From contig CADCML010000038.1 of assembly GCA_902802535.1 (NCBI GenBank), positions 1 to 40,192 on the forward strand: a stretch of DNA of 40,192 nt, given 5' to 3'. Below the pieces are notes generated by a model. It ran no database searches. It was not told the origin of the DNA and was given only the letters and a program-made list of their open reading frames with translations. Source of the stretch: an uncultured Bacteroidia bacterium. GTDB taxonomy: Bacteria > Bacteroidota > Bacteroidia > Bacteroidales > F082. The translations under genes were made by a program, and so were the position numbers. Each line of letters opens with the position of its first letter. Within the stretch, counting starts at the first letter, position 1. This document shows positions 13,892 through 38,492 of the stretch, in pieces.

Positions 13892-15262
13892 CTACACCAT
13901 TTCCAATTCAGGAAGGATGATCGTAGTGTCGTTTTCGGGGTCGTGCTGGAGAAACATGCAGTAATAGACGGGCATGTATGTGATGCCCTTCTTTTGATAC
14001 ACTTGCCGATCGTTGGAGAAAACGATGGCGCGGTCGATGCCATATTCTTCTGTTTCAATGAATTTGCTTAAGGCACTATGCTCGGTGTAGTTTTTTCCCG
14101 ACTTGATTTCCAAAGGCAACACTTTCAGCCGCTCAAAGTCGTCGATTAGGAAATCCACTTCGCCCTTCTGTTTGTTGTCGTAATAATGCAACGGAAAACC
14201 GTGGGCGTGGAGTTCTTGTGCCACCACAGACTCATACACCGTTCCAAGGTTGATGCTCTTGATGTCCTGCAGCACTGCATTGACATTCAAGCCATAAAGC
14301 AGATGCGTGAGAAGCCCCACGTCGTTCAGATACAATTTGATGAGCCGTTTTTGCTCTGATTCTATCAAAGGGAACTTGGGGTTGCTGATGGCGAGCACTT
14401 CCAAGGCCACCCCCGAACTGGAAAGGTATTCGAATTCATCGGCATAATCGGCGAAATGCTTCCCCGTCTTGTTCTCGATTTGCTTATAGACGACACGCTT
14501 TTTTCTGTTCTCCAAGTTGCTGGGAATCAAGTCGTAGATGCGGCGTATGATCAGTTTGTGCTCTTCGTCGTATTGTGAGGCATCAATGCGGTAGAGTTCG
14601 TGGATGTCCCTGTGTACCGACCTCACCCTCACCATGTTGCGGTCTTCCAAATAGCGGTTGACGGCTTCGGGCAATCCACCCACCAACAGGTAGTATTGGA
14701 AACGTTTCAACAAGAGGTTGTGCACATTTTCATCTAAAGGAATCTCCTGCAAGAAATGCTTTCTCACGTTCTCAATCCATTCCTTTCCGATTCCGGTTGC
14801 CCACAGAAACTCTTCGAAATCAAGAGGGTACATTTGCTCGATTTCCACGCTCCCAATGGGCACGGAAGGCGTTTGCGAAAGGGCTACACCCAACTGCGAG
14901 CCACTGGCGATGAAACGATAACGCCCTTCCTGATTCAAGAACTTGAGCATGGTGAGCAGGTGAGGGTAACTTTGTATCTCATCCAAAAAGACCAAGGTGT
15001 TCGTTTTGTCGCCCAAAGGCTCTGGATAATAGTTGCTTAAGCGCATGTAGAGGTCGTTGGTGGAACGTACATCAGCAAAGACCTGATCGCCTTCCTTGTC
15101 CTCCTTGAGGTTGATTTCGACATAATGGGCGAATAGTTTCTTGCCCACATAGCGAATAAGATACGACTTCCCGATTTGTCGTGCACCGTTGACGAGGAGG
15201 ATTTTGTCTGGTTTGTTTTGTAGGAAATCTTCGAGATAGGTCGTGAATTTGCGCTGTAACAT
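13892..15262 (-). CDS. AAA_14/DUF4143 family ATPase
   Basis: This 456-residue protein has two modules. The N-terminal P-loop ATPase has Walker A G26-A-R-Q-I-G-K-S33, Walker B L-V-F-L-D-E95 and a sensor-like I-A-S-G-S. The C-terminal DUF4143 domain carries a PD-(D/E)XK-type core: G-E-V-D370-F-L-I and L-E385-I-K387-S-G-K. The family is abundant in Bacteroidota and archaea. Its members are often strain-specific and have no proven role; nuclease or DNA-translocation activity is inferred from the fold. The start at 15262 was preferred over the frame open to 15328 because of the -7 box at 15286. Upstream of the promoter are three 33-bp-period direct repeats (15325-15401). The gene separates miaB from mtaB and looks like an insertion into a housekeeping block. 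Confidence 0.88.
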   Translation of the reverse strand: MLQRKFTTYLEDFLQNKPDKILLVNGARQIGKSYLIRYVGKKLFAHYVEINLKEDKEGDQVFADVRSTNDLYMRLSNYYPEPLGDKTNTLVFLDEIQSYPHLLTMLKFLNQEGRYRFIASGSQLGVALSQTPSVPIGSVEIEQMYPLDFEEFLWATGIGKEWIENVRKHFLQEIPLDENVHNLLLKRFQYYLLVGGLPEAVNRYLEDRNMVRVRSVHRDIHELYRIDASQYDEEHKLIIRRIYDLIPSNLENRKKRVVYKQIENKTGKHFADYADEFEYLSSSGVALEVLAISNPKFPLIESEQKRLIKLYLNDVGLLTHLLYGLNVNAVLQDIKSINLGTVYESVVAQELHAHGFPLHYYDNKQKGEVDFLIDDFERLKVLPLEIKSGKNYTEHSALSKFIETEEYGIDRAIVFSNDRQVYQKKGITYMPVYYCMFLQHDPENDTTIILPELEMV

Positions 15263-15285
15263 GGTATTTGCTTGAAAATCTGCTG

Positions 15286-15293
15286 CAAAAGTA
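15286..15293 (-). promoter_or_regulatory. Bacteroidota -7 box (TACTTTTG) for the AAA_14 gene
   Basis: Minus strand exact TAnnTTTG, with CTTG (minus strand, 15314-15317) 20 bases upstream as a -33 candidate. The direct repeats begin 8 bases beyond that -33 candidate. Confidence 0.6.
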
Positions 15294-15324
15294 TAGAGAA
15301 ATAATGAATCTTGCAAGCAAAAAA

Positions 15325-15401
15325 CCACTTATTCCATAAAATCAACCATAAAAATTACCACTTATTCCGTTTTTTAAGGGATAAAAACGACCATTTATTC
15401 C
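15325..15401. repeat. Three direct repeats with exact 33-bp spacing upstream of the AAA_14 ATPase
   Basis: The minus-strand core GGAATAAGTGG occurs at 15325-15335 and 15358-15368, with a variant GGAATAAATGG at 15391-15401. The steps are exactly 33 bases, close to three helical turns, so all copies lie on one face of the DNA. The two distal units also share TTTTTAT just after the core. The third copy overlaps the stop codon of miaB. The array sits immediately upstream of the promoter of the ATPase gene. Confidence 0.9.
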
Positions 15402-16765
15402 GTTTTCGATGATGCCAGTTCCCCCTCAATCGACAACGGCGAAGCCGAAGTAACTTTGACCTTCACAATTTGTCCGATAAGTTTCGTGTCTTTCGAAGCA
15501 AACCGAATGACAATCTTGCCCTCGGTGTGGCCAGTAAGGTAGCCGTTCTTGCGGTCGTGGCTCTCCACGAGCATCTTGACGGTCTGCCCGATGAGGCCTT
15601 GGTTATAGACAAGGCTGTGCTTCATCAATTCCTCGGTGAGGCGGTGGTAGCGCTGGCGTTTCACTTCCTTCGGCACGTCGTCGTCCCATTCCGAGGCCAC
15701 GGCACCAGGGCGCACGCTGTACTGCGCGATGAACGCCATGTTGTACTTGAACTCCTCCATGGCCTTGCGCGTGTTCTCGAATTCCTCTTCGGTCTCGTGC
15801 GTGAAGCCCACGATGATGTCGGTGAAGATGGTGGCGATGATATGGCGGTAGGTGGCCAGGTCGTGGTGGCGGTTCATGCGTTGCAGCATGTTCTCATCGC
15901 CCGACTGGATGGGGATGTGGATTTGTTTGCCGAGGCAGTCATATTGCGCCATCACCTCAATGACGTCGTCCTTCATGTCGCGGGGATGCGGCGCGGTGTA
16001 ATACACCCAAAACTCCTTTCCGCTGGCTTTGCCGTATTCACCCACACGGCGCAGAAGTTCCGTAAAGTTGATTTCTTCGCCTTTCTTGTCCAAGCCGTAG
16101 GAATTGACATTCTGTCCCAAAAGGGTGATGCTCTTGTAACCTTTTTCGACCAAATCCTTCAGCTCGGCCAAAATCTCCTCCGAAGGTCTCGACACCTCGC
16201 GGCCGCGGGTATAAGGCACGGCGCAGTAGGTGCAGAACTTGTTACAGCCGTTCTGAATAGGGATGAAAGCTTCGAATGAGGAGGTTTGTGTCGGTGTGAT
16301 GGCCCAAAAACGCTCCATATTAGCCGAGGGGTTGATTTTGTCATCTTTGTGGAACAGCGGTGCCAACGGCTTGACAACGGGTTGAAATTCAATCTCTTCC
16401 CCGAAGCGCAACGAGGCTGGCGTGACGATGCCGTATTGCCGAATCATTTCAGGCAAATTGGGCAGTTCGTTCATGGGGAACACGAGGTCGAAGAGCTTGA
16501 GGAAACGCAGGCGGTCGGCGGGCAGTATGCAGCCCGACACGAAGGTGATGACGCTCTGGCGGTTTTTCATGGCGTTCCATTTCTCAATGCGGCCATACAC
16601 CTTGTCGATGCCTTTCTGTCGCACCGAGCAAGCGATGATGCCGAGGATGGTGGCCTCGTTTTCGTTTTCAGTTTCGACGAAACCCATGCCGTTGAGCACC
16701 GTGCGCACGCGCTCCGTGTCGCTCAAGTTCATCTGGCAGCCTAAAGGAAGGAGATAGTATTTCAT
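15395..16765 (-). CDS. miaB: MiaB-family tRNA 2-methylthioadenosine synthase
   Basis: This 456-residue radical-SAM methylthiotransferase belongs to the family that adds methylthio groups to i6A37 of tRNA. The first domain has P-L-G-C10-Q-M-N-L-S-D-T-E-R, A-C46-S-V-R-Q and S-G-C79. The radical-SAM motif is N-G-C174-N-K-F-C178-T-Y-C181-A-V-P-Y-T-R-G-R-E, the classic MiaB form, followed by L-L-G-Q-N-V-N-S-Y. The C-terminus is a TRAM domain. The A-C-S-V-R-Q-K-G version of motif 2 differs from the usual Bacteroides MiaB (N-T-C-S-I-R-D), so it may be a divergent or laterally acquired MiaB. The start at 16765 fits the family; longer frames run into a hairpin repeat. Its last codon overlaps the upstream repeat array of the AAA_14 gene. 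Confidence 0.88.
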   Translation of the reverse strand: MKYYLLPLGCQMNLSDTERVRTVLNGMGFVETENENEATILGIIACSVRQKGIDKVYGRIEKWNAMKNRQSVITFVSGCILPADRLRFLKLFDLVFPMNELPNLPEMIRQYGIVTPASLRFGEEIEFQPVVKPLAPLFHKDDKINPSANMERFWAITPTQTSSFEAFIPIQNGCNKFCTYCAVPYTRGREVSRPSEEILAELKDLVEKGYKSITLLGQNVNSYGLDKKGEEINFTELLRRVGEYGKASGKEFWVYYTAPHPRDMKDDVIEVMAQYDCLGKQIHIPIQSGDENMLQRMNRHHDLATYRHIIATIFTDIIVGFTHETEEEFENTRKAMEEFKYNMAFIAQYSVRPGAVASEWDDDVPKEVKRQRYHRLTEELMKHSLVYNQGLIGQTVKMLVESHDRKNGYLTGHTEGKIVIRFASKDTKLIGQIVKVKVTSASPLSIEGELASSKTE

Positions 16766-16780
16766 ATTTGTTTGTCGTAG

Positions 16781-16802
16781 GGGCAGACCCACATGTCTGC
16801 CC
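16781..16802. repeat. Hairpin repeat in the miaB leader
   Basis: Perfect 8-bp stem GGGCAGAC / GTCTGCCC with a 6-base loop (CCACAT), preceded by GTAG. It lies between the likely miaB promoter and its ATG, so it would be part of the 5' untranslated RNA. It resembles short hairpin repeats that recur in Bacteroidota genomes, but no second exact copy was found in this window. Confidence 0.7.
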
Positions 16803-16840
16803 AAAATGATTATCAATTAGCAACGGTTCGATTTGGGGTG

Positions 16841-16848
16841 CAAAATTA
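16841..16848 (-). promoter_or_regulatory. Bacteroidota -7 box (TAATTTTG) for miaB
   Basis: Minus strand exact TAnnTTTG. It gives a leader of about 70 bases that contains the hairpin at 16781-16802. It is divergent from the promoter at 16871, 22 bases away. Confidence 0.5.
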
Positions 16849-16870
16849 GTTTAATTTTGTGGAAAATATG

Positions 16871-16878
16871 TATTTTTG
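16871..16878 (+). promoter_or_regulatory. Bacteroidota -7 box (TATTTTTG) for the His/Cys protein-TonB receptor operon
   Basis: Exact TAnnTTTG, 20 bases before the ATG at 16899. Confidence 0.55.
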
Positions 16879-16898
16879 CGCCCCGAAAGTGCAGAAAA

Positions 16899-17213
16899 AT
16901 GAAACGGTGCAAAGTTAAAATAGCGTATTTCCTGTTGGCGGTTTATCTGCCGATGTGGTTATTGGCATCGTTTCACGTTCATGTCAGTCCTTTGGAAAAT
17001 AATGGTTTGTCTACAGAACGACATGCTTCGGAGTTGGAGGGTGACGACTGTCTGCTCTGTCAGTTCCAGCAGCTTGTCTATGAAGACACGCCACAGATGT
17101 CAGTAGCGTTCATTTTGCCTGAAATTGAGGTAAATGTTCAGCCTTTCACCATTGGTGAGCAAAGCATTTTCGGAACCCGTTTCCTTTCCCGTGCACCTCC
17201 AGTCTTGTTGTAA
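16899..17213 (+). CDS. Small His/Cys-motif membrane protein ahead of a TonB receptor
   Basis: This 104-residue protein has one hydrophobic N-terminal helix (about 7-25) that could be a signal anchor. It is followed directly by H26-V-H28, then H42, and a C51-x-x-C54 pair set in an acidic patch (E-G-D-D-C-L-L-C-Q-F). The H-x-H plus C-x-x-C pattern suggests metal binding, most likely on the periplasmic side. It resembles the short DUF2946-like proteins seen beside metal-linked TonB receptors, but identity by eye is weak. It shares a promoter with the TonB receptor gene, which starts 50 bases after its stop. The ATG at 16899 lies 20 bases from the -7 box; the frame open to 16833 starts upstream of that box. 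Confidence 0.72.
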   Translation: MKRCKVKIAYFLLAVYLPMWLLASFHVHVSPLENNGLSTERHASELEGDDCLLCQFQQLVYEDTPQMSVAFILPEIEVNVQPFTIGEQSIFGTRFLSRAPPVLL

Positions 17214-17262
17214 ATTTAAGAGAATCAATCTACTACATTTTTAATTTATCAACAAGACTAAA

Positions 17263-19356
17263 ATGAAAAAACTATTATTATTAGGCTTGTCGTTGGCTTG
17301 TGCATTGCCGATGACAGCTCAGAGTTTGCCTGACTCTACAGATGTGTTTTTCAGGCATTTGGAATTGAAGGAAGTAATGGTGACGGGTGCCGTGGGCGAC
17401 ATGAAAATGAAGGAATCACCCCTGCCGATTACCATGCTTCATGCCAAGGAACTGCGCCAGTTGTCTTCTACCAACTTCATTGACGCACTCGCCAAACAAC
17501 CTGGCATGGCGCAAATTACAACAGGCAGTGGCATATCAAAACCAGTCATTCGAGGATTGGGTTACAACCGCATTGTGGTCGTCAATGATGGCATACGTCA
17601 GGAAGGCCAGCAGTGGGGCGACGAGCATGGCATCGAAATCGACGGCAACGAGGTGGGCTCGGTCGAAATCCTGAAAGGTCCCGCGAGCTTGATGTATGGC
17701 TCCGATGCCATGGGCGGTGTGTTGGTGTTCAAAGGGATGCCGACTCCACCCGAAGGTACAGTCAAAGGAGGTGTGAATGCTGAATATCAGACCAATAACG
17801 GCCTCATTGGGGCTTCGTTCAATATTGCTGGCAATCAAAAAGGTTTCACTTGGGATGCGCGTTACAGCGAAAAACACGCTCATGCCTACAAGAACCGTTT
17901 CGATGGCTATGTGCCTAATTCCCAGTTTGGTGAACGGGCTTTCTCGCTCAAGACGGGCTTGATGGGCTCGTGGGGTTTTTCCAATCTCAAATTCGGGTAT
18001 TACAACATCAATCCGAGCATTGTGGAAGGAGAACGCGACACGGTGACAGGCGAGTTGCTGTCGGAGAAGGGGGATTTGTTGACTTATCGTCACGGCTTGC
18101 CCTATCAGCGGGTGTATCATTTCAAGGCGGTTTCGGAGAGTTTCATCAACCTGTCGTCGGGCTATTTGAAGGTGATTGCGGGCTATCAGCAGAACCGCCG
18201 CCAGGAGTTTGAGGAGTCACCAGACGAATACGGCCTGTACCTGCAACTCCACACGCTGAACTATGATGTTCGTTATGTTTCGGAAGAAAAGTCGGGCTGG
18301 AAGTTCTCGACGGGCGTGAACGGCATGGGGCAAAAATCGCTCAATTTGGGCGATGAATTTCTCATTCCCGACTATACCTTGTTCGATGCAGGCGTATATG
18401 CCACGGCTTCCAAGAGCTTGGCCCGCTGGAATTTAAGCGGCGGCTTGCGTTTCGACTACCGCTATTTGAACGCAAAAGGCTTGGAAGAAGACGGCGTGAT
18501 GCGGTTTGAGGATTTCACGCGGCATTTCTGCGGTGTCACGGGCAGCATTGGAGCGACTTGCGAGGTCACGGAGCATTTGGATGTGAAACTCAACTTGGCT
18601 CGGGGGTTCCGCACGCCCAATATCAGCGAGTTGTCGTCCAATGGTGTGCACGAAGGCTCGTTGAGGTATGAGATTGGCAATCACAATTTTAAGTCGGAGT
18701 ATAGCTTGCAGGCCGATTTGGGGCTCAATTATGCCACACGCTATTTTGAGTTGCATGGTGCCGTGTTTGCCAACCATATCAGCAATTACATCTACCTGCA
18801 TCGCATTGACAGCATCATCGAGCCCGACCTGATGACTTTTGCCTACGCCCAAGGCGAGGCCATGCTGTTTGGTTTTGAGGGCAGCTTGGACTTCCATCCA
18901 CTTCATTCCTTGCATTTCGGGGCGGCTTTTTCGTATGTGAATGCGCAACTGCTGCACCAACCCGTGGAGATGAAGTATCTGCCTATGACACCGGCGCCGC
19001 GCCTCTCAGCCGATGTGAAATACGAGTTGACGCACGATGGCCAAGTGTTCAACAATGCATACGTGGCGGTTCAAGCGGATTGGTATCTGAAACAGGATCA
19101 TTATTTTGCGGCTTACGATACCGAAACGATGACGCCTTCTTATCTCCTGTTAGGCGTGTCGGTGGGCTCTGATGTGCTCATTAAAGGCAAGAAGGTGGCT
19201 GAGTTGCATTTGATTGTCGACAACTTGACCGATGTGTGCTACCAAAACCATTTGAGCCGCCTGAAATATGCCGACGTGAACGTCGTTACGGGCCGACGGG
19301 GTGTGTTCAACATGGGACGCAACTTCGTTTTCAAGCTGACGGTGCCCATTGGTTGA
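17263..19356 (+). CDS. TonB-dependent outer membrane receptor, probably for a metal or metal complex
   Basis: This 697-residue protein has a signal peptide (cleavage near A-Q-S at about 20), a TonB box-like L-K-E-V-M-V-T-G (about 35-42), a plug domain and a 22-strand barrel. The plug contains P-V-I-R-G-L-G-Y-N-R, D-G-I-R-Q-E-G-Q-Q-W-G-D-E-H-G and V-E-I-L-K-G-P-A-S-L-M-Y-G-S-D-A-M-G-G-V. It lacks the carboxypeptidase-like N-terminal extension of SusC proteins, so it is a classic siderophore/metal-type receptor. The G-Q-Q-W-G-D-E-H-G plug motif is common in receptors linked with copper or zinc, and the preceding His/Cys protein points the same way. The substrate is an inference. The stop is 5 bases from the stop of convergent lplA, with no terminator between. 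Confidence 0.88.
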   Translation: MKKLLLLGLSLACALPMTAQSLPDSTDVFFRHLELKEVMVTGAVGDMKMKESPLPITMLHAKELRQLSSTNFIDALAKQPGMAQITTGSGISKPVIRGLGYNRIVVVNDGIRQEGQQWGDEHGIEIDGNEVGSVEILKGPASLMYGSDAMGGVLVFKGMPTPPEGTVKGGVNAEYQTNNGLIGASFNIAGNQKGFTWDARYSEKHAHAYKNRFDGYVPNSQFGERAFSLKTGLMGSWGFSNLKFGYYNINPSIVEGERDTVTGELLSEKGDLLTYRHGLPYQRVYHFKAVSESFINLSSGYLKVIAGYQQNRRQEFEESPDEYGLYLQLHTLNYDVRYVSEEKSGWKFSTGVNGMGQKSLNLGDEFLIPDYTLFDAGVYATASKSLARWNLSGGLRFDYRYLNAKGLEEDGVMRFEDFTRHFCGVTGSIGATCEVTEHLDVKLNLARGFRTPNISELSSNGVHEGSLRYEIGNHNFKSEYSLQADLGLNYATRYFELHGAVFANHISNYIYLHRIDSIIEPDLMTFAYAQGEAMLFGFEGSLDFHPLHSLHFGAAFSYVNAQLLHQPVEMKYLPMTPAPRLSADVKYELTHDGQVFNNAYVAVQADWYLKQDHYFAAYDTETMTPSYLLLGVSVGSDVLIKGKKVAELHLIVDNLTDVCYQNHLSRLKYADVNVVTGRRGVFNMGRNFVFKLTVPIG

Positions 19357-19361
19357 TGCCT

Positions 19362-20327
19362 TTAGCTGTAAATCAGGCGGACGATATCGCTGAGGATTTC
19401 GTCGCTTGGGTCAAATGGGGGCATTTCGAAGGTGCTACTGCCGCGGAGCAGGGTTTCTGCCCTTTGAATCGCCTCAGGTTCAAGGCAATCCGAGGCGATT
19501 TGTAGGTCTTTGATGCGGGCGTTGGCCTCGTCGATTTGCAACGAAATTTCTACGCCGCCCCATGGGAAACGGTCTTTTTTCGTGGTCTTGAACTGCTCCC
19601 AACGGCCGAAAAGGAAGTCGTAGGACGAAATTTCCGACCGGATGGCTTGGACCTCAGCTATATTAATTAAGGTGTCGAAATCGGTGACGGTCGCTTTGCC
19701 TTCGTAAACCTTTTCAAACGCGGCAATCAACGGCTGCTTGATATGCTCCGAGGTCAATTCCGGGACAAGCTCGCTGAGGTTGACGACACGGCTGGCCACG
19801 CTCTTCACGCCGTTTTTCAGCAGTTTGGCCTTGTCGACGATGAGGTAGCGTTGCATCATTGCGCCGTCGGTCTTGATGAGGATGGTGCCGTGGTGCAGGT
19901 CGTTCCTTTGTCCTTTTGCGAAGGCGTTGCCGCTGAACTTGCGCCCTTGGCAAGTGAGGTCGTTGCGTCCCGAAATCTCGGTTTGCAAGCCGTAAGTGAG
20001 GAGCGCACTCTGGATGACGGAGAGCTGTTTCTTCACGTCATACAGCCTTTTGTCGGCAATGAACGAGAAGTTGATGTTGCCCAAATCGTGGTAGACCGCG
20101 CCGCCGCCCGTGCCGCGCCGCATGAGGTGGCCGCCGTCGTCCAACAGCAGTTTGACGTTGCATTCGGCGTACGGATTCTGGTTGTAGCCGATGACGACGG
20201 TGCGCTCGTTCTTCCACAGGTACAACGTAACCACCCCTTCCTCCTGGCGGTCGGTGAGATATTGCTCGACGGCGCGGTTGAGGAAGGGGTCGTACTGCGG
20301 GCTGATGATGACTCGAAGCCTGCTCAT
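19362..20327 (-). CDS. lplA: Lipoate-protein ligase A
   Basis: This 321-residue protein activates lipoate with ATP and attaches it to a lysine of E2 or GcvH proteins in the cytoplasm. The lipoate/biotin ligase signature is R70-R-G-T-G-G-G-A-V-Y-H80-D-L-G-N-I-N-F-S-F, followed by G-R-K-F-S-G-N-A with the substrate-binding Lys. A C-terminal accessory domain includes W-x-x-F-P-W-G-G-V-E. Length fits the bipartite LplA type. It begins 6 bases after the stop of the T9SS protein gene on the same strand, so the two are probably co-transcribed, although the partnership makes no obvious functional sense. LpdA, which uses lipoylated partners, is encoded at 35383-36774. Confidence 0.93.
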   Translation of the reverse strand: MSRLRVIISPQYDPFLNRAVEQYLTDRQEEGVVTLYLWKNERTVVIGYNQNPYAECNVKLLLDDGGHLMRRGTGGGAVYHDLGNINFSFIADKRLYDVKKQLSVIQSALLTYGLQTEISGRNDLTCQGRKFSGNAFAKGQRNDLHHGTILIKTDGAMMQRYLIVDKAKLLKNGVKSVASRVVNLSELVPELTSEHIKQPLIAAFEKVYEGKATVTDFDTLINIAEVQAIRSEISSYDFLFGRWEQFKTTKKDRFPWGGVEISLQIDEANARIKDLQIASDCLEPEAIQRAETLLRGSSTFEMPPFDPSDEILSDIVRLIYS

Positions 20328-20333
20328 GTTGTC

Positions 20334-22202: not shown

Positions 22203-22233
22203 TGAGATGTAATTTTTGCTTGGTTTGTTGCCG

Positions 22234-22266
22234 CAAAACTACAAAAATTTGTTTCTTTGCGCCAAA
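22234..22266 (-). promoter_or_regulatory. Bacteroidota promoter: -33 TTTG and -7 TAGTTTTG
   Basis: On the minus strand TTTG (22263-22266) and TAGTTTTG (22234-22241) are 21 bases apart, close to the Bacteroidota consensus spacing. It serves the T9SS protein gene at 22202. Confidence 0.65.
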
Positions 22267-22277
22267 ATTCTTTCGCT

Positions 22278-22616: not shown

Positions 22617-22619
22617 AGC

Positions 22620-27961: not shown

Positions 27962-27982
27962 AACATGCGCAAAAATTGGCTT

Positions 27983-29025: not shown

Positions 29026-29077
29026 CCCATTTTAGTGAAAAGGGGAACACCAAAAGAGCCATAGAGAAAAAAAATGC

Positions 29078-29108: not shown

Positions 29109-30692
29109 ATGCTACCCATGAGACTCTACACCGCCGGCATCGCCGATTTTGAACGCATCCGCCAAGATGGACGCATTTACATTGACAAGACAGACCTTAT
29201 CTACAAACTGACAAAAGAATCGCAATTCGTCTTCCTCAGCCGCCCGCGAAGGTTCGGTAAGAGCCTGCTTTGCAGCACATTGAAATACTATTTCCAGGGT
29301 CGCAAGGACTTGTTCGAGGGTTTGGCCATCGGCGAGTTGGAGAAGGACTGGAAGCAGTATCCCGTGTTGCATTTCGACATCAGTGCCTGCAAGAACAAAT
29401 GGGAAATGAATCAGATTATCAATGAGTTGCATAGCCAGTTGGACATGCACGAGCGACGCTACAAATGGGAAAAGACAGAAGGCTCGCCCGGTGAACGCCT
29501 CAAGAAACTGATCCAGCAAGTACACGAGAAGACAGGCCTGAAAGCCGTGGTCGTTTTGGACGAGTACGATGCTCCCTTGCTTGATTATTTGCACAAGCCG
29601 GAACAACTGGCGGAAGTGCGCCGCATCATGCAGGAGTTCTATCAGGTAGTGAAAGTTTGTGATGCCGATGAGCAGTTCGTATTCATCACAGGCATTACGA
29701 AGTTCAGCCAACTGAGCATCTTCTCCACTTTGAACAACCTGACCAACATCTCAATGGATTCGGAATACACCGCCCTCTGCGGCATCACCAAGGACGAGAT
29801 GCTGACCGTCTTCGACCCCGACATCCAAATGCTTGCCGACCGTTACCATTGCTCCAAGGAGGAAATGATCGACATGCTGAAGCAACAATATGACGGGTAT
29901 CACTTCGGGAAAGACTCCAAGGACATTTTCAATCCTTACAGTTTGGTGAATGCATTCAAAATGAAAGACCTTGATTATTACTGGTTTGGCAGTGGCACTC
30001 CCACCTTCCTCTTCGAGTCGATGAAACGCTTCAACACAAATTTGCTTGAATTGGAGCAACTACAAGTGCCGTCAACGCAATTCGATGTGCCCACCGAAGC
30101 CATGACCTCCGCCTTGCCCTTGCTCTATCAGGCGGGCTATCTCACCATCAAGGGTTATGACTTTTTGAGCAACAAATACACGCTCGACTTCCCCAACGCC
30201 GAAGTGAAGGTGGGTTTCATGGAAAACTTCATGGCACGAATGATGAACCTCGGCAGCACCGATTCGAGGGGCTTCGCGGGTGATTTCTATGCCAACCTTT
30301 ACCATCACGACATCGAAGGTGCCTTGAAAGCCATGCAATCGTTCTTCTCCTCGATTCCTTATTTGGAATTTGGCGCAAAGGAATTGGACGACATCACAAA
30401 ATATGAGGCATATTACGAAGTGTTGACCTACGTGGTGTTCTCCATCTTCAATTGCCGCACCTTTACGCAGGTGAAGGTGGCGCGTGGCCGCACGGATGTG
30501 GTGGTCTTTATGCGCGACGCGGTCTACGTGATGGAGCTGAAGATGCGCGGCACGGCGCAAGAGGCCCTCGACCAAATCAACTCGAAAGACTACGCGATTC
30601 CTTACCAAGCCGAGGGCAAGCCAGTCGTCAAGATTGGCATCGCTTTCTCGCAAGAGACCAAGACGGTTTCTGATTGGATTATCGAGAAGTGA
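29109..30692 (+). CDS. AAA-ATPase-like protein with C-terminal PD-(D/E)XK domain (DUF1703 type)
   Basis: This 527-residue protein starts with the family's I-R-x-D-G-R-I-Y-I-D-K-T-D-L-I-Y segment and a P-loop-like R45-P-R-R-F-G-K-S52-L. V-V-V-L-D-E-Y-D-A-P-L-L (about 155-166) acts as Walker B. F-I-T-G-I-T-K-F-S is the sensor, and Y-D-G-Y-H-F-G marks the arm region. The C-terminus has the nuclease-like core G-R-T-D463-V-V-V ... V-M-E476-L-K478. These proteins are numerous and variable in Bacteroidota and have no established function. The start at 29109 follows the -7 box; the frame open to 29013 overlaps the upstream gene. It is the second of three AAA/PD-(D/E)XK genes in this window and stands alone in its transcription unit. 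Confidence 0.88.
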   Translation: MLPMRLYTAGIADFERIRQDGRIYIDKTDLIYKLTKESQFVFLSRPRRFGKSLLCSTLKYYFQGRKDLFEGLAIGELEKDWKQYPVLHFDISACKNKWEMNQIINELHSQLDMHERRYKWEKTEGSPGERLKKLIQQVHEKTGLKAVVVLDEYDAPLLDYLHKPEQLAEVRRIMQEFYQVVKVCDADEQFVFITGITKFSQLSIFSTLNNLTNISMDSEYTALCGITKDEMLTVFDPDIQMLADRYHCSKEEMIDMLKQQYDGYHFGKDSKDIFNPYSLVNAFKMKDLDYYWFGSGTPTFLFESMKRFNTNLLELEQLQVPSTQFDVPTEAMTSALPLLYQAGYLTIKGYDFLSNKYTLDFPNAEVKVGFMENFMARMMNLGSTDSRGFAGDFYANLYHHDIEGALKAMQSFFSSIPYLEFGAKELDDITKYEAYYEVLTYVVFSIFNCRTFTQVKVARGRTDVVVFMRDAVYVMELKMRGTAQEALDQINSKDYAIPYQAEGKPVVKIGIAFSQETKTVSDWIIEK

Positions 30693-30726
30693 CGGTGACT
30701 TCTATCCAACCCAAACGAAAAATGCG

Positions 30727-30745
30727 GCATCCCAAAACGGGGTGC
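30727..30745. other. Small hairpin between convergent genes
   Basis: Stem GCATCCC / GGGGTGC (one T-G pair) with a 5-base loop, in the 97-base gap between the AAA gene and uvrA. There is no T run, so a terminator role is doubtful. Confidence 0.3.
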
Positions 30746-30789
30746 AGTTGAACCAATTCAATGCTTGATTCAATGGCAATTCGTGTTAA

Positions 30790-33630: not shown

Positions 33631-33651
33631 TCCTTATTACTTACTCCTAAA

Positions 33652-34632
33652 CTATTCACTTCTCATAGGCTTATGCGTCTTCGCAAACTTCCCCGTAGGA
33701 ATCTTGATTTCATAACTGTTTCCGGGAGAAATGGTCAGCGAAGTGCCGCGCAGCCAAGGGTTGAAGTGTTTCAGCATCTTGAGGTTGGTGCCTTGCTCAT
33801 AGGCGAAATCCACCAGATTGGGAATCGACTCCGTGACGGTCACGGTTTTGGCCTCGAAAGGCCGGTACCAGCCGTTGTCACCGATTTGGAAACCGTATTT
33901 TTCGGGGTTCTCGGTGATGAGTTTCAGCGCGAGGATGCGGAACACATAGCGTTGCGTTTCCTCGGGTAATATCATGTCGTAATAGGAATCTACCCGCTGG
34001 TCTTCTTGCGTCTTGGAGATGCGACCGTTGCCGCAGTTGAAGGCCGCTGCCGCTGCCGTCCAACTGCCGAACTTCCTGTAGGATTCCTTCAAATACTTGC
34101 AAGCCGCAACGGTTTCTTTCTCAACGTTGTAGCGCATGTCCACCTCTTTGTTGATTTCCAAACTGTATTGTTTGCCTGTCGATTCAAGAAACTGCCAAAA
34201 CCCCACCGCCTTGGCAGGCGAGACGGCGTTGGTCAGTTCGCTCTCAATCATGGCGAGGTACTTGAAGTCGTCGGGCAGGCCGTATTTCTCCATCAGCGGT
34301 TCCATCACGGGAAACCACCTTGTGGTGCGTTTCAGCAACAAGATGGTAGCGGAATGTCTGTAGGAGTTGACCAACAGCTCACGCTCCAAACGTTCGCGGA
34401 CATAGAACAAATCCAACGGTACTTCCTCGCCGCAAAACTCCATCGACTCCGGCAGCTCGATGTCGTGCGTGATATGGTCGATGCGGTCGAAGGAGAGGTA
34501 TTCGCGATCGGTGCCTTCATATTCTTCCATTTGCTCGTCGTTGGACTGCGCCAAGGCAATCGTGATGGCAGCGGTTGCACCTATTAATATAATAGCCATG
34601 CCACATGCCAGGAGGATGTTCCTTGTTTTCAT
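33652..34632 (-). CDS. Lytic murein transglycosylase (SLT domain)
   Basis: This 326-residue protein has an N-terminal hydrophobic signal or anchor (about 7-28). An SLT domain (about 105-230) follows, with the catalytic Glu in L-A-M-I-E130-S-E-L, then A-V-G-F-W-Q-F and, further on, A-A-A-A-A-F-N-C-G-N-G-R-I, the usual transglycosylase motifs. The last ~60 residues look like a degenerate LysM or cell-wall-binding segment with N-P-W-L-R-G. It cleaves peptidoglycan between MurNAc and GlcNAc to give anhydro ends. It resembles MltD-type enzymes with a shortened tail. The start was set at 34632 because upstream frame positions lie inside rfbC. It follows rfbC by 26 bases and precedes uvrA by 21. Confidence 0.9.
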   Translation of the reverse strand: MKTRNILLACGMAIILIGATAAITIALAQSNDEQMEEYEGTDREYLSFDRIDHITHDIELPESMEFCGEEVPLDLFYVRERLERELLVNSYRHSATILLLKRTTRWFPVMEPLMEKYGLPDDFKYLAMIESELTNAVSPAKAVGFWQFLESTGKQYSLEINKEVDMRYNVEKETVAACKYLKESYRKFGSWTAAAAAFNCGNGRISKTQEDQRVDSYYDMILPEETQRYVFRILALKLITENPEKYGFQIGDNGWYRPFEAKTVTVTESIPNLVDFAYEQGTNLKMLKHFNPWLRGTSLTISPGNSYEIKIPTGKFAKTHKPMRSE

Positions 34633-34658
34633 AATGGTTCTATGTCTGTTAGAAATTC

Positions 34659-35201
34659 TCAAAATTGTGATACAAAATCTTTGAACATCGGCGACACCTT
34701 GTCTTTTTCCGAAAGAATCGGGTTCTCGATGTCCCACTTGATGCCCAAATCGGGGTCGTTCCAGCGGATGCTGCCTTCCGAGGCCTTGTTGTAGACATTC
34801 GTGCACTTATAGGTGAACACGGAATGGTCCTCCAAGCAAACGAAGCCGTGGGCAAAGCCTTCCGGAATCCAGTACATGAACTTGTTGGCTTCAGTCAGAA
34901 TGACCGATTCCCATTGCCCGTAGGTGGGTGAACCTTTTCTGATGTCGACGGCCACATCCATAACCGCGCCCTTCACCACGCGCACCAATTTGCCTTGCGC
35001 AAAAGGCGGTTTCTGGAAATGCAACCCGCGCAAAACGCCTTTCATCGACTGCGACTCGTTGTCCTGTACGAAATTCATTTCTAAGCCATGCTCGGCAAAG
35101 CGCGCCTTGTTGTAACTCTCGAAAAAATAGCCGCGTTCGTCCGAAAAAACATCCGGCTTGATGATTAACAGGTCTTTTATTTTGGTTTCAATGATTTCCA
35201 T
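34659..35201 (-). CDS. rfbC: dTDP-4-dehydrorhamnose 3,5-epimerase
   Basis: This 180-residue cupin enzyme carries out the third step of dTDP-L-rhamnose synthesis for surface polysaccharides. Visible features: D-E-R-G-Y-F-F-E-S (about 21-29), V-L-R-G-L-H61-F-Q with the catalytic His, D-V-A-V-D-I-R-K-G-S-P-T-Y-G, P-E-G-F-A-H-G-F, and Y-K-C-T-N-x-Y carrying the active-site Tyr. Length is exact for RfbC. The other rhamnose genes (rfbA, rfbB, rfbD) are not nearby, so this one is detached from the usual cluster. It heads a same-strand group with the transglycosylase and uvrA. Its upstream region is occupied by the inverted-repeat element at 35217-35375. Confidence 0.95.
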   Translation of the reverse strand: MEIIETKIKDLLIIKPDVFSDERGYFFESYNKARFAEHGLEMNFVQDNESQSMKGVLRGLHFQKPPFAQGKLVRVVKGAVMDVAVDIRKGSPTYGQWESVILTEANKFMYWIPEGFAHGFVCLEDHSVFTYKCTNVYNKASEGSIRWNDPDLGIKWDIENPILSEKDKVSPMFKDFVSQF

Positions 35202-35216
35202 TGTCTCTTATTTTTT

Positions 35217-35375
35217 AACTACGAATTACACGAATGTCACGAATATATTTAGAAAGTTATTGGGCAACAAGTTGCTGTTGTTACGAATTTTGAGGTCTTT
35301 TCATTCGTAAAAATGGAGGCTTGCGTCCTCGAAATTCTTTCGCTTCAATTTGTTCAATTCGTGTAATTCGTAGTT
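35217..35375. repeat. MITE-like element with 19-bp perfect terminal inverted repeats
   Basis: Ends AACTACGAATTACACGAAT (35217-35235) and its exact inverse at 35357-35375 bracket 159 bp with no gene. Inside is a second perfect pair, TTACGAAT (35281-35288) and ATTCGTAA (35303-35310). It fills nearly all of the 181-base gap between lpdA and rfbC. No flanking target duplication is obvious. A non-autonomous element or a folded RNA element are both possible. Confidence 0.75.
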
Positions 35376-35382
35376 TCTTTAA

Positions 35383-36774
35383 TCATAAATGTACACATTC
35401 GTTGTAGGCCGCCGCAGCCGCCTCCATGATGCCCTCCGACATGGTGGGGTGGGGGAACACGGCGCGGATGATGTCTTCTCCCTTGGCACCGAGCTCGCGG
35501 CAGAGAACAGCAGCTGCCACCATCTCGGTGACGTTGTCGCCAACCATGTGGCAACCTAACCAGTCGCCAGTCTTGGCATCGAAGACGACCTTGATGAAGC
35601 CGTCACGGTTGCCAGCAGCGGTGGCCTTGCCCGAGGCCGTGAAGGGGAACTTGCCAATCTTCACCTCGTAGCCTGCTGCGATGGCCTTGGCTTCGCTCAA
35701 ACCGACGGAGGCGATTTCGGGCGTGGTATAGGTGCAGCCCGGAATGTTGGCATAGTTCAGCGGCTTGGGATTCAGGCCGCAAAGTTTCTCCACGCAGATG
35801 GTGGCTTCGTGGTCGGCCTTGTGCGCGAGGGCGGGACCATGCACGATGTCACCGATGGCATAGATGCCCGGAACGTTGGTGCGATAATACTCGTCCACGT
35901 TGATTTTGCCGCGTTCAGTGCTGATGCCGAGTTCCTCAAGGCCGAGGTTATCGATGTTGGTCTGCACGCCGACGGCGGACAAAACGATGTCGGCCTCCAC
36001 GGTCTTCTCACCCTTCTTGGTGGCGATGGTGCATACGCACTTCTCGCCCGTGGTGTCGACATGGGTCACCGAGGCTTCGGTCATCACGGTCATCTTCAAT
36101 TTCTTGAAGGCGCGTTCCACCTGTTTGGAGACTTCTTCGTCCTCGTTCGGGACCACGTTGGGCAAGAATTCGACCAAGGTCACTTTCACACCCATTGAGG
36201 TGAAGAAGAAAGCGAACTCCGAGCCGATGGCACCTGAACCCACTACGACCATGCTCTCAGGCAATTTGTCCAAAACCAGAGCTTGACGGTAGCCGATGAT
36301 TTTCTTGCCGTCGATAGGCAAGGCGGGCAGCTCGCGCACACGTGAACCTGTGGCAAGGATGATGTGTTCTGCTTCGTGAAGGGTAACGTTGCCTTCGGCA
36401 TCGGTCACTTCCACTTGCTTGTCGGCGGTCAGTTTGCCGTAGCCGGCAATGACTTCCACGTTGTTCTTTTTGAGCAGGTATTGCACGCCTTTGCTCATGG
36501 TGTCGGCCACGCCGCGACTGCGGGCCACGACGGCCTCCATGTCGGGTTTCACTTCGCCTTCCACCTTGATGCCGTAGTTTTCGGCATGATTAATATAGGT
36601 GTAGACCTGCGCGCTTTTCAGCAGGGCTTTGGTGGGGATGCAGCCCCAGTTGAGGCAGATGCCGCCCACTTCGGCCTTTTCGACCACGGCGGTCTTCTTT
36701 CCAAGTTGTGATGCTCTGATGGCAGCCACATAGCCTCCCGGGCCGCTGCCGATAACGATTATGTCGTATTTCAT
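35383..36774 (-). CDS. lpdA: Dihydrolipoyl dehydrogenase (E3)
   Basis: This 463-residue flavoprotein reoxidises dihydrolipoamide of 2-oxo-acid dehydrogenase complexes or the glycine cleavage system, passing electrons to NAD+. The FAD-binding motif G-S-G-P-G-G-Y-V-A-A-I-R is at the start. The redox disulfide is C40-L-N-W-G-C45-I-P-T-K (Trp in place of the common Val). A second Rossmann motif (V-V-G-S-G-A-I-G-S-E-F) binds NAD, and the C-terminal H-P-T-M-S-E-G holds the catalytic His-Glu dyad. An ATG at 36774 is preferred; a TTG two codons earlier is possible. It stands alone here. Its lipoylated partners are not in the window, but lplA is. Confidence 0.95.
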   Translation of the reverse strand: MKYDIIVIGSGPGGYVAAIRASQLGKKTAVVEKAEVGGICLNWGCIPTKALLKSAQVYTYINHAENYGIKVEGEVKPDMEAVVARSRGVADTMSKGVQYLLKKNNVEVIAGYGKLTADKQVEVTDAEGNVTLHEAEHIILATGSRVRELPALPIDGKKIIGYRQALVLDKLPESMVVVGSGAIGSEFAFFFTSMGVKVTLVEFLPNVVPNEDEEVSKQVERAFKKLKMTVMTEASVTHVDTTGEKCVCTIATKKGEKTVEADIVLSAVGVQTNIDNLGLEELGISTERGKINVDEYYRTNVPGIYAIGDIVHGPALAHKADHEATICVEKLCGLNPKPLNYANIPGCTYTTPEIASVGLSEAKAIAAGYEVKIGKFPFTASGKATAAGNRDGFIKVVFDAKTGDWLGCHMVGDNVTEMVAAAVLCRELGAKGEDIIRAVFPHPTMSEGIMEAAAAAYNECVHL

Positions 36775-36817
36775 ATTCAAGGATTTAATGATTTAATATT
36801 CAAAGATTTAAGATTCT

Positions 36818-36860
36818 CTTGTCGACGCTTCGCGTCATTGCGAGGAACGAAGCAATCCAG
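36818..36860. repeat. Dispersed palindromic repeat, single copy
   Basis: Matches the units at 7661-7810 with few changes (CGTCATTGCGAGGAACGAAG core). It is 27 kb from the main cluster and lies between lpdA and the downstream end of the DUF234 gene. Confidence 0.88.
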
Positions 36861-36861
36861 A

Positions 36862-36887
36862 TTCGTAATTTTGCGCGAAATTACGAA
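36862..36887. other. Perfect 10-bp hairpin
   Basis: TTCGTAATTT (36862-36871) and AAATTACGAA (36878-36887) with a 6-base loop TGCGCG, directly beside the dispersed repeat. It may terminate the DUF234 transcript, though the T run is poor. Confidence 0.5.
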
Positions 36888-36919
36888 AAATTCCGCAATG
36901 CGTTGGCAATTTTGTCAAA

Positions 36920-38344
36920 TCATCCGAACAAATCTTCCAATTTCACCACATTTTGAATCATCCCCGAATACATCCCCTTTGCCAAGCCCTCGGTGGTAAT
37001 CAATGTGAGCCAAGAAGCATGGCGGAGGCCGGTCTCTTTAATAAAGGTGTTGCGTCTCCGATTGATTTTCTCGTATTCTTCTTTGTCAAGTTCGTATTCG
37101 TCTTGGCTGTATTTCACCTCGCACACGTTAACAATCTTGTCGGCACGCTCAATGATGAGGTCTATTTGGACGGCAGGTTTCGCGGTTTTGCTGCGCCACG
37201 AGTAGTTGAGCGTTGAGATGCCGTCGATGCGGAGTGCCCGCTTGATTTGCGGAATGTGAGCCAAACAAATGCGTTCGAAGGCCAATCCCATCCAAGTGTT
37301 CACCTCAGGCGTGTTGATGTGGTGCGACCAATATTCCGTTTCCACCTCAGCTCTGTCGACGAAGGTCAGGTAGAAAAGGCTGAAAAAGTCGCAAATCTGA
37401 TAAATGGCATCCTTGCTCTTGATTTCTTTTTCGCGGACGATATTTTTCCGAACAAGGTCGCAATGCACGAGGTCTTCCAACTTGTTGCCCAAATGTCCGT
37501 TGTTGGCGCATTTCAGTTCTGTAGTCAATTGCTCGCGGGTCATTCCGTGCCGACTTTTGCTCAGTGCCTTGACAATGTCGATGTATCTGTCGGGATGTTT
37601 GTAGAGCGTGTTGAATAGCCGGCGGAACTCGCGCCGCATTTTCGTGTCACGGCTGAAGAAAAGACGGTCGATGTTTTGGACAAAACTTTCGCTGTTGTCC
37701 AACAGACTGAGGTAATAGGGTATGCCGCCGAAGACCATATAGGCTTGAAGTGCCATCTGCCTGTTCCACACGAATTGGTGTTCGTTGAGGTATTCCTCCA
37801 CTTCACGCAAAGTGAAAGGATGTAAGGGCATCTCTTCCGTGAGGCGGTCATGCAAGCCGCCTTTGTTGTCGATGACGTTGGTAATCATCCAACTGGTTGC
37901 GCTACCGCAAATGATGAGGATGACATTGTCTTGAAGCGAAGCCCAGTTGTTCCAGAAATACCCAACTGCTCCAGCAACATTAGAGTTTTCGGCATCCAAG
38001 GCCGGCAACTCGTCAATGAAGATAATGCAGCGTTCCTCGCGTTTTGCCGTTTTCTTCAGCGCGTTTTTCAGCATGACAAATGCCGACATCCAGTCTTTTG
38101 GCTTTTCAGGAAGGTCGTATCCGAACTCTTCCATGGCATCGGAAAAGGCGGTGAATTGGTCTTTCAGAGTGCCTTCGATGACCCCAGTCATCTTGAAGGC
38201 GAACTGGTTTTTGAAAACTTGGTTGATGAGAAAAGTCTTGCCCACGCGCCGCCGACCAAACAGGGCGAGAAACTCTGCCCGAGGACTCTCACAGAGAGCA
38301 TTCAACCTGCTGATTTCAGCATTTCTTCCGATGATATTATCCAT
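36920..38344 (-). CDS. AAA ATPase with DUF234 domain (ATPase_2 family)
   Basis: This 474-residue protein has Walker A G30-R-R-R-V-G-K-T37, Walker B I-I-F-I-D-E112-L and a sensor-like I-C-G-S-A-T-S. A winged-helix-like middle follows, and the C-terminal DUF234 domain has the PD-(D/E)XK core V-Q-I-D395-L-I-I ... V-C-E409-V-K411. The N-terminal G-R-N-A-E-I-x-R-L opening is typical of the archaeal-type ATPase_2 family. Function is unproven; such genes are variable between strains. The start ATG 38344 is followed by a canonical short opening. Its promoter (38367-38398) is the best match in this window, and two perfect palindromes (38405-38492) lie just beyond it. This is the third AAA/PD-(D/E)XK gene here. 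Confidence 0.9.
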   Translation of the reverse strand: MDNIIGRNAEISRLNALCESPRAEFLALFGRRRVGKTFLINQVFKNQFAFKMTGVIEGTLKDQFTAFSDAMEEFGYDLPEKPKDWMSAFVMLKNALKKTAKREERCIIFIDELPALDAENSNVAGAVGYFWNNWASLQDNVILIICGSATSWMITNVIDNKGGLHDRLTEEMPLHPFTLREVEEYLNEHQFVWNRQMALQAYMVFGGIPYYLSLLDNSESFVQNIDRLFFSRDTKMRREFRRLFNTLYKHPDRYIDIVKALSKSRHGMTREQLTTELKCANNGHLGNKLEDLVHCDLVRKNIVREKEIKSKDAIYQICDFFSLFYLTFVDRAEVETEYWSHHINTPEVNTWMGLAFERICLAHIPQIKRALRIDGISTLNYSWRSKTAKPAVQIDLIIERADKIVNVCEVKYSQDEYELDKEEYEKINRRRNTFIKETGLRHASWLTLITTEGLAKGMYSGMIQNVVKLEDLFG

Positions 38345-38366
38345 AATGAAACTTGTTTTGACTTTG

Positions 38367-38398
38367 CAAAAATACGATGAATATATAAATCATGCAAA
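38367..38398 (-). promoter_or_regulatory. Bacteroidota promoter of the DUF234 gene: -33 TTTG, -7 TATTTTTG
   Basis: Minus strand TTTG (38395-38398) and TATTTTTG (38367-38374) with a 20-base spacer, an exact consensus arrangement. The palindromic repeats start 6 bases upstream of the -33 element. Confidence 0.75.
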
Positions 38399-38404
38399 TG
38401 TTTT

Positions 38405-38492
38405 GGGCGAAATCTATCAAAAATCATATAGATTTCGCCCTTTTTATGTGGTTTTAGGGCGAAATCTATTAAAAATTGGGTAGATTTCGCCC
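38405..38492. repeat. Two tandem perfect palindromes upstream of the DUF234 ATPase
   Basis: The word GGGCGAAATCTA occurs four times in alternating orientation. Palindrome 1 has a 13-bp stem (38405-38417 and 38428-38440, loop 10). Palindrome 2 has a 12-bp stem (38457-38468 and 38481-38492, loop 12). They are 52 bases apart. Outer flanks ATGTTT/AAACAT continue the symmetry. Both loops are A/T-rich. They sit directly upstream of the ATPase promoter and next to the small membrane protein gene. Confidence 0.93.

What the first reader, a model, noticed from the sequence alone, without database searches (positions are those of the whole stretch)
13892..38492. Three unrelated AAA-PD-(D/E)XK genes, each with private symmetric DNA just upstream of its promoter
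The AAA_14/DUF4143 gene (13892-15262), the DUF1703-type gene (29109-30692) and the ATPase_2/DUF234 gene (36920-38344) all join a P-loop module to a C-terminal D...ExK core. Each is a single-gene unit dropped among housekeeping genes. Two have strong repeat arrays at the same position relative to the promoter. The third has a weak palindrome, CCCATTTT-AGTG-AAAAGGGG, at 29026-29045. The sequences differ, the architecture does not. A shared way of life is possible: a gene plus its cognate cis-sites acting as a selfish, regulatory or defence cassette.
Basis: inference. Interest (0 to 1): 0.72.

Follow-up and report, generated by a model that had tools for sequence, protein, structure and literature searches.

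The report
Nuclease genes carrying private DNA tags
Two of the three genes belong to a very common, poorly understood nuclease family in which most copies examined carry beside their promoter a short repeated DNA sequence of their own, which moves and changes together with the gene and is probably the site that the protein reads to control itself.

Summary
Genes A (13892-15262) and C (36920-38344) are homologous AAA+/PD-(D/E)XK proteins (PADLOC PDC-S01, PDC-S27). Their upstream repeats are real: A has three direct copies 33 bp apart, C two palindromes 52 bp apart. Gene B is another family; its 'palindrome' is chance-level and not conserved. The pattern reaches far beyond the window. Of 70 A/C relatives kept from this genome, 54 have significant upstream repeats (controls 32 of 190), with different unit sequences but few spacings (about 33, 22 or 52 bp). 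In A's subfamily a ~33-bp multiple was the top repeat offset in 80 of 80 genome loci, from Bacteroidota to Bacillota, mostly in fixed register with the promoter. Unit sequence tracks protein identity; of 85 within-genome pairs compared none shared a unit. In 99 genus genomes the exact A and C motifs lie beside their own intact gene (4 of 7, 7 of 10 genomes) or at relic or gene-less sites. Empty sites exist for both. Best reading: single-gene, horizontally exchanged nuclease cassettes, each with its own promoter-embedded operator array. That the protein binds the array, and autoregulation, are inferred. Copy-and-paste transposition is disfavoured: one of 2415 within-genome pairs reaches 70% identity.

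The parts
13892..15262 (-). Gene A: AAA_14 + DUF4143, PADLOC PDC-S01, 456 aa; Walker A near residues 26-32; PD-(D/E)XK candidates E344, D370, E385, K387
   Evidence: E344, E385, K387 invariant, D370 at 90% or more of 80 sequences; model, pLDDT 89.6
15286..15293 (-). -7 promoter-like element TACTTTTG of gene A (Bacteroidota TAnnTTTG; the consensus is recalled)
15325..15335 (-). Array unit 1 of A (GGAATAAGTGG)
15358..15368 (-). Array unit 2 of A (GGAATAAGTGG), 33 bp from unit 1
15391..15401 (-). Array unit 3 of A (GGAATAAATGG), 33 bp from unit 2; its TAA is the stop codon of the upstream miaB-type gene
36920..38344 (-). Gene C: ATPase_2 + DUF234, PADLOC PDC-S27, 474 aa; D395, E409 and K411 invariant in 13 sequences
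38367..38374 (-). -7 promoter-like element TATTTTTG of gene C
38405..38440 (.). Palindrome 1 of C, GGGCGAAATCTAT..ATAGATTTCGCCC
38457..38492 (.). Palindrome 2 of C, 52 bp from palindrome 1
29109..30692 (+). Gene B: AAA-ATPase_like + PDDEXK_9; a different family, not part of the repeat pattern
29026..29045 (.). B's weak palindrome: chance level, not conserved
15395..16816 (-). miaB-type gene, left neighbour of cassette A; the mtaB-type gene follows it directly in 20 of 29 relatives by my reading of the printed DNA
12437..13834 (-). mtaB-type gene, right neighbour of cassette A
35383..36780 (-). Dihydrolipoamide-dehydrogenase-type gene next to cassette C; relatives show the empty site upstream of it

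Best explanation
A and C are members of one AAA+/PD-(D/E)XK superfamily that spreads as single-gene cassettes made of [private repeat array + promoter + gene]. The array is most likely the operator of the gene: the protein assembles on regularly spaced copies of its own unit (about 33 bp apart in A's subfamily, 52 bp between palindromes in C's) that overlap or adjoin its core promoter, and so controls its own expression. The pairing is private: protein and unit change together, and no two A-subfamily members compared within one genome shared a unit, which would keep dozens of co-resident paralogues from cross-regulating. The nuclease core is conserved, so the output is probably DNA cleavage, plausibly anti-phage or anti-plasmid, with the array holding the protein in check until a trigger. 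SHOWN: repeats, spacing, register with the promoter, covariation, co-mobility, empty sites, gene-less motifs. INFERRED: that the protein binds its array, that binding represses, that the output is defence.
For: Upstream repeats in 54 of 70 own-genome members against 32 of 190 control upstreams; direct repeats 46 of 70 against 13 of 190. Significant direct repeats in the 33-, 52- or 22-bp classes in 41 of 70 members against 2 of 190 controls. Top offset is a multiple of about 33 in 80 of 80 genome loci, 70 of 80 at p 1/61. A permissive detector without shuffle control finds the lattice in 90 of 90 genus members with enough upstream DNA. Palindromes upstream of 28 of 30 C-type loci against 2.75 expected from shuffles; 25 of 30 have two or more counting downstream, no control for that count. 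The -7 element lies at phase 6-9 of the 33-bp lattice in 116 of 134; in Bacillota-type loci TTGAAA of the unit starts 23 nt before TATAAT in 9 of 11. Unit mismatches (of 11) rise from 0.16 at 90-100% protein identity to 4.3 at 50-55%; pairs sharing a unit: within genomes 0 of 85, between genomes 291 of 3909. Residue 364 covaries with one unit base: R with T 26 of 26, K with G or A 140 of 142. Exact A-array pattern in 7 of 99 genomes: 4 beside intact A, 3 beside a 23-residue C-terminal stub of A, two of these seen at the miaB site. Exact C palindrome in 10 of 99: 7 beside intact C, 3 without it. Empty sites. Fold class of Orc1/Cdc6-ORC and STAND proteins.
Against: No binding or expression data. 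16 of 70 own-genome members show no significant repeat, and four haloarchaeal and one Thermus relative were not significant. Covariation columns do not cluster in one DNA-binding surface, and the residue-364 switch may be only one or two events on the tree. The register could be inherited from one ancestor, since A-subfamily units share a GAA core. In a C subgroup one palindrome lies downstream of the stop codon, which a simple operator does not need. Repeats persist without an intact gene at six genomes' sites. Defence is a label only.
Confidence: 0.66

Rival explanations
1. The repeats are the ends of a single-gene mobile element: the AAA+ nuclease recognises its own array or palindromes to cut itself out and insert elsewhere (transposition or homing), and regulation is secondary.
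For: In C-type copies at different sites, local alignments break close to the palindrome edges: about -148 to -160 upstream (once -176) and -7 to -19 at the stop codon in the window-C group, and -101 to -106 and stop+63 to +65, where a second palindrome lies, for L082 and L085 against their relatives. A deletion derivative in G059, G060 and G066 keeps the array and the last 23 codons of A. Different family members occupy the miaB-mtaB site in different species. The C profile hits transposon protein TnsC.
Against: No amplification: 1 of 2415 own-genome pairs reaches 70% identity and none 90%. No recombinase domain reported by Pfam. No clean target-site duplication at the junctions read. In A-type copies the breaks are looser (about -97 to -224 upstream, -37 to +1 at the stop; for window A against L096 the break at -105 lies inside the array). 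Few gene-less motifs: one A relic class and three C sites in 99 genomes. Arrays are in register with the promoter.
Confidence: 0.18
2. Incompatibility or addiction: the array is a self tag that the nuclease must find, and cells or incoming DNA that lose or lack it are attacked, so two systems with the same tag cannot coexist.
For: 0 of 85 within-genome pairs share a unit and none reaches 70% protein identity, while family B in some of the same genomes has many similar copies. Iteron-like lattice and initiator-like AAA+ fold class.
Against: The shuffled-label test of exclusion is only weak (P 0.02 for protein classes, 0.06 for units). Arrays without an intact gene persist in several species.
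Confidence: 0.1
3. The repeats bind a host regulator or act as RNA hairpins (attenuator or terminator), and covary with the genes only by descent.
For: C-type palindromes could fold in RNA; covariation and register have few independent events.
Against: Dozens of different units exist in one genome, which no single host factor would be expected to read. A-type units are direct repeats. In many loci the units lie upstream of the -7 element and so outside the transcript.
Confidence: 0.06

Closest known systems
PADLOC PDC-S01 and PDC-S27 (single-gene phage-defence candidates)
   Same: A and C match these models at E 9.9e-182 and 5.6e-184. PMC12988326 (passages) describes both as ATPase domains fused to PD-(D/E)XK members and PDC-S01 as the fourth most common defence across prokaryotes, with validation pending for most PDCs of the core defensome.
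   Different: None of the passages I read mentions cognate repeats, promoter arrays or cassette behaviour.
RptR repressor of a phage-defence island (PMC12255303, abstract and outline seen)
   Same: Control of a defence locus by binding three direct repeats in its promoter.
   Different: RptR is a small separate regulator with a conserved TAGCTA site; here the presumed reader is the AAA+ nuclease itself and copies have their own units.
Archaeal Orc1/Cdc6 with origin boxes, and plasmid Rep proteins with iterons (adjacency and iteron facts recalled)
   Different: No evidence of an origin; a PD-(D/E)XK nuclease is fused; TM-scores are low (0.21-0.41 by query length in the 50 rows listed), so the match is of the fold class only.
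REP palindromes with RAYT transposases (recalled)
   Same: One gene bordered by its own palindromes.
   Different: No HUH/Y1 domain was reported by Pfam, and the palindrome is not dispersed in the genomes.
TnsC / IstB-type transposition ATPases
   Same: The C profile hits VchTnsC at 4.2e-07.
   Different: No partner transposase gene among the ten window ORFs scanned.

Membership tests
PDC-S01 / PDC-S27 | Match to the PADLOC profiles over nearly full length | tested here: met
   A 23-469 of the 478-aa ORF, C 1-473 of 474
PDC-S01 / PDC-S27 | Intact ATPase and PD-(D/E)XK residues | tested here: met
   Invariant or nearly invariant in A3 and A4; activity itself not tested
PDC-S01 / PDC-S27 | Protection against phage | not testable with these tools
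   needs plaque assays
PDC-S01 / PDC-S27 | Location among defence genes | tested here: inconclusive
   Eight of ten window ORFs scanned have housekeeping-type Pfam hits, two have none; other loci were not scanned for defence neighbours
Copy-and-paste transposon / IS element | Near-identical copies within a genome | tested here: not met
   1 of 2415 pairs at 70% or more, none at 90%
Copy-and-paste transposon / IS element | Known transposase or recombinase domain | tested here: not met
   Pfam hits of A and C are AAA-type ATPases and DUF4143/DUF234 only
Copy-and-paste transposon / IS element | Target-site duplication | tested here: inconclusive
   No clean duplication seen at the junctions, but relatives are diverged
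Autoregulated operator system | Sites at or beside own promoter, in fixed register | tested here: met
Autoregulated operator system | Cognate protein binds the sites and changes expression | not testable with these tools
   only covariation is available
REP/RAYT | Dispersed palindrome copies apart from the gene | tested here: not met
   Exact palindrome without an intact C gene at 3 sites in 99 genomes
Restriction-modification | Neighbouring DNA methyltransferase | tested here: not met
   None among the 10 window ORFs scanned; the GidB hit is an rRNA methyltransferase

The most novel reading that the evidence does not exclude
These are self-tagged nuclease cassettes: each AAA+ PD-(D/E)XK protein carries beside its gene an iteron-like array that is at once its operator and its identity tag. 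The nuclease-fold domain reads the tag (residue 364 with unit base 0). Genomes accumulate dozens of mutually private tag-nuclease pairs that behave like incompatibility types, attacking DNA or cells in which the tag is missing, displaced or out-titrated. This would be the missing mechanism of one of the commonest uncharacterised defence candidates.
Probability: 0.15. Interest if true: 0.95.

Novelty: new variant of a known kind. Interest (0 to 1): 0.79.

Why it matters
PDC-S01 is reported as the fourth most common defence type in prokaryotes, with validation pending for most PDCs (PMC12988326 passages). A private, promoter-coupled array beside the gene supplies the DNA ligand to use in binding assays, gives a sequence rule for finding and classing members, suggests how dozens of paralogues coexist, and predicts a specificity residue to test. 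If the array is also an identity tag, it would be a new way for a single gene to enforce its own maintenance.

Tried and rejected
Rejected: (1) B as part of the pattern. (2) 'Three unrelated families': A and C are homologous. (3) Locating one DNA-reading surface by covariation: top columns are scattered; residue 364 is among the top columns in both and was followed up. (4) Phage-borne targets: the A pattern hit two viral contigs, both inside low-complexity glycine/serine-repeat genes; the C palindrome hit none; the Bacillota-type pattern hit only a contig that carries a family member. (5) A first palindrome detector was too strict (16 of 30 upstream, 1 of 30 with two); relaxed arms with a shuffle control gave 28 of 30 against 2.75. 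The strict result is told because the relaxed setting was chosen after seeing it. (6) Single-protein scans of viral contigs found no relative; the alignment scan gave 11 loci. (7) Solved structures by sequence: best single-protein E 0.19 for A, no hit for C. (8) Relatives from 12 plasmid records, chosen by me from the listed hits: 6 of 12 reach p 0.016 in the direct or inverted test (Vibrio, Acinetobacter, Butyrivibrio, Emticicia, Rhodothermus, Bacteroides), Parabacteroides 0.033 at offset 33, Thermus and four haloarchaea not (24 tests, 60 shuffles each).

Limits of the counts: control genes are ORFs chosen by rule (150 aa or more, first ATG), not annotated genes. The 70 own-genome members include some truncated ones; ORFs without a matching P-loop pattern and repeated upstreams were dropped, and the middle's output was cut. 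Searches list only part of the matches; of the A-type hits listed at 53% or more I fetched those in L095-L124 and L293-L351 and left a few out (two on G066:C12, one at a contig edge). The array detector is permissive and has no shuffle control.

Literature: searches in the held open-access library found no paper whose listing describes such repeats for these families. That is absence in those searches only; most subscription papers are not held. Papers seen: PMC12988326, PMC13356809 and PMC4406477 as passages; PMC12255303 abstract and outline; the rest as search listings.
Full report
WHAT IS IN THE WINDOW. Gene A (13892-15262, minus) is AAA_14+DUF4143, gene B (29109-30692, plus) AAA-ATPase_like+PDDEXK_9, gene C (36920-38344, minus) ATPase_2+DUF234. 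PADLOC files A as PDC-S01 (E 9.9e-182) and C as PDC-S27 (E 5.6e-184); B has only one weak hit (E 0.025). A has three direct copies of a 17-nt repeat, 33 bp apart. Its 11-bp core occurs three times in the 40-kb window against 0.52 expected. C has two palindromes 52 bp apart; none is expected by chance. B's palindrome is ordinary: 60 of 251 windows of 160 nt hold one at least as good. Of ten other ORFs scanned, eight gave housekeeping-type Pfam hits and two none.

A AND C ARE ONE FAMILY. The genome (3.7 Mb, 139 contigs, completeness 85%, contamination 6.3%) has 63 DUF4143, 8 DUF234 and 11 AAA-ATPase_like matches. I fetched 64 stretches around them. Iterated profile searches from A and from C converge on largely the same 76-78 ORFs, fragments included; B recruits 9. 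70 A/C ORFs with a recognisable P-loop and distinct upstream DNA were kept.

MOST MEMBERS HAVE THEIR OWN REPEATS. In 160 nt upstream, 54 of 70 members have a direct or inverted repeat at p 0.01 or less against 100 dinucleotide shuffles; 32 of 190 control upstreams from the same stretches do. For direct repeats it is 46 of 70 against 13 of 190; for inverted ones 21 of 70 against 24 of 190. The units differ from member to member, yet the offsets of significant direct repeats fall in few classes: 30 near 33 bp or its multiples, 7 near 52, 4 near 22 and 5 other, against 2 near 33 and 11 other among controls. Of 45 units tested, 4 had any match at one mismatch or less outside their own upstream in the 0.79 Mb held.

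THE LATTICE CROSSES PHYLA. A scan of genome contigs with an alignment of A's subfamily kept the best 80 of 574 confirmed relatives, from Bacteroidales and from Bacillota such as Flavonifractor and Holdemania. In 80 of 80 the best direct-repeat offset was 32-34, 64-66 or 98 nt; 70 of 80 reached p 1/61. Within the genus, 30 A-type loci, 59 further fetched members and two own-genome paralogues gave 90 usable upstreams of 91 (L119 was too short), and 90 of 90 show the lattice by a permissive detector without shuffle control. The unit keeps a GAA core and varies beyond it: GGAATAAGTGG, GGAAAAAGTCCC, GGAAAAGTGTA, GGAAAACGCAGT, TTGAAAAGTCA and so on. For C-type genes 28 of 30 loci have upstream palindromes against 2.75 expected from shuffles, and 25 of 30 have two or more when the downstream side is counted, some of them likely terminators (a stricter detector found 16 of 30). 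Of 12 relatives on plasmids, 6 were significant; a Thermus and four haloarchaeal ones were not.

REGISTER WITH THE PROMOTER. Of 134 distinct upstreams with a TAnnTTTG element and an array, 116 have it at phase 6-9 of the 33-bp lattice, whether the last unit is 8-9 nt or one or two periods further upstream. In Bacillota-type loci the unit's TTGAAA can serve as the -35 box: in 9 of 11 it starts 23 nt before TATAAT, and a further unit follows the -10 box. Shared descent may account for part of this.

GENE AND REPEATS TRAVEL AND CHANGE TOGETHER. Orthologues at 82-91% identity to A and 84-87% to C carry the same or nearly the same unit, at several unrelated sites. Local alignments between C-type copies at different sites stop close to the palindromes (-148 to -160, once -176) and near the stop codon (-7 to -19), or, for L082 and L085 against their relatives, at -101 to -106 and at a second palindrome at stop+63 to +65. 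For A-type copies the breaks are looser, -97 to -224 and -37 to +1, and for window A against L096 the break lies inside the array. Unit mismatches (of 11) grow from 0.16 at 90-100% protein identity to 4.3 at 50-55%. Residue 364, in the PD-(D/E)XK domain just before E368 and D370, is R in 26 sequences, all with T at unit base 0, and K in 142, of which 140 have G or A. The tree needs at least two changes for the R/T group, but strongly supported branches force only one. Other covarying columns are scattered, so the reading surface is not settled.

EMPTY SITES AND RELICS. In 20 of 29 relatives read, the mtaB-type gene follows the miaB-type gene directly (my reading of the DNA printed); in 6 other DNA follows, and in 3 (L140, L141, L149) family members or remnants. 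Against L148, L151, L136, L154, L130 and L152 the window is 1678-1684 bp longer at A. In the window the stop codon of the miaB-type gene is supplied by array unit 3. C's site is empty in L159, L163, L179, L181, L167 and L170 (1764-1785 bp shorter). No clean target duplication was seen. The exact A array occurs in 7 of 99 genus genomes: 4 beside intact A and 3 (G059, G060, G066) beside a 23-residue C-terminal stub of A, at the miaB site in G060 and G066. The exact C palindrome occurs in 10 of 99: 7 beside intact C; G014 has the pair without the gene in the 3-kb locus, G020 one palindrome near the gene that precedes lpd elsewhere (by eye), and G049 one beside what looks by eye like a C-terminal fragment, although tblastn with C gave no hit there. 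Reversed control patterns gave 0.

WHAT ARGUES AGAINST A SELFISH TRANSPOSON. Among 70 own-genome members (2415 pairs) one pair reaches 70% identity (89%) and none 90%. Of 85 within-genome pairs of A's subfamily none shares a unit, while 291 of 3909 between-genome pairs do; the shuffled-label test for exclusion is weak (P 0.02 and 0.06). Family B does amplify in some of these genomes: G061 alone lists twelve hits at 78-91% identity to B, two of them partial. B upstreams have no such repeats (1 of 20 direct, 3 of 20 inverted).

STRUCTURE. The model of A is confident (pLDDT 89.6, pTM 0.89). Foldseek ranks Cdc6/Orc1 on origin DNA first, then Apaf-1, ORC subunits and the STAND protein EfAvs5, all with low TM-scores, so this is class-level similarity. 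The C profile finds 2fna, 2qen, VchTnsC and ORC4; the A profile finds midasin and 2fna. E344, E385 and K387 are invariant and D370 nearly so in 80 sequences, so the nuclease is probably active.

CONCLUSION. The rule is that AAA_14/ATPase_2-DUF4143/DUF234 genes commonly come with private, regularly spaced DNA sites that are coupled to their promoters and travel with them. Autoregulation by the encoded protein is the simplest account; the nuclease's target and any defence role are open.

Noticed in passing
window 7658-7810 and about 36820-36870: A 54-bp tandem repeat (2.8 copies) containing CGTCATTGCGAGGCACGAAGCAATCCAG; a close variant lies between C and lpd, and similar motifs precede lpd in several relatives. 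It looks like a dispersed intergenic repeat.
   Followed up: no
window 29109-30692; L382-L401: Family B (AAA-ATPase_like + PDDEXK_9) has many 78-91% similar copies in some genomes (for example G061, G066, G089) while 80 of 99 genus genomes have no match at E 1e-150, unlike A and C.
   Followed up: partly
L008 11330-12397 and about 12392-12440: A short family member whose unit appears upstream and, at one mismatch, twice at its 3' end, 32 bp apart.
   Followed up: no
L140, L141, L149: The miaB-mtaB junction holds different family members in different species (A, an A relic plus a C-type gene, or a C-type gene alone): an insertion hot spot.
   Followed up: partly
PMC4406477 passage: A Thermus thermophilus AAA_14/DUF4143 gene near a CRISPR locus, TT_P0211, is listed with a value of 6.6 in a section on expression changes caused by plasmid DNA; a possible trigger to test.
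   Followed up: no
L029 10087-11310 and L030 3844-5061: The only near-duplicate own-genome pair (89%); it may reflect assembly contamination (6.3%) rather than a true duplicate.
   Followed up: no
L408-L411 upstream: Four haloarchaeal relatives share a TCATTATC-type motif just before the start codon although the DNA further upstream differs; not significant by the repeat test.
   Followed up: no
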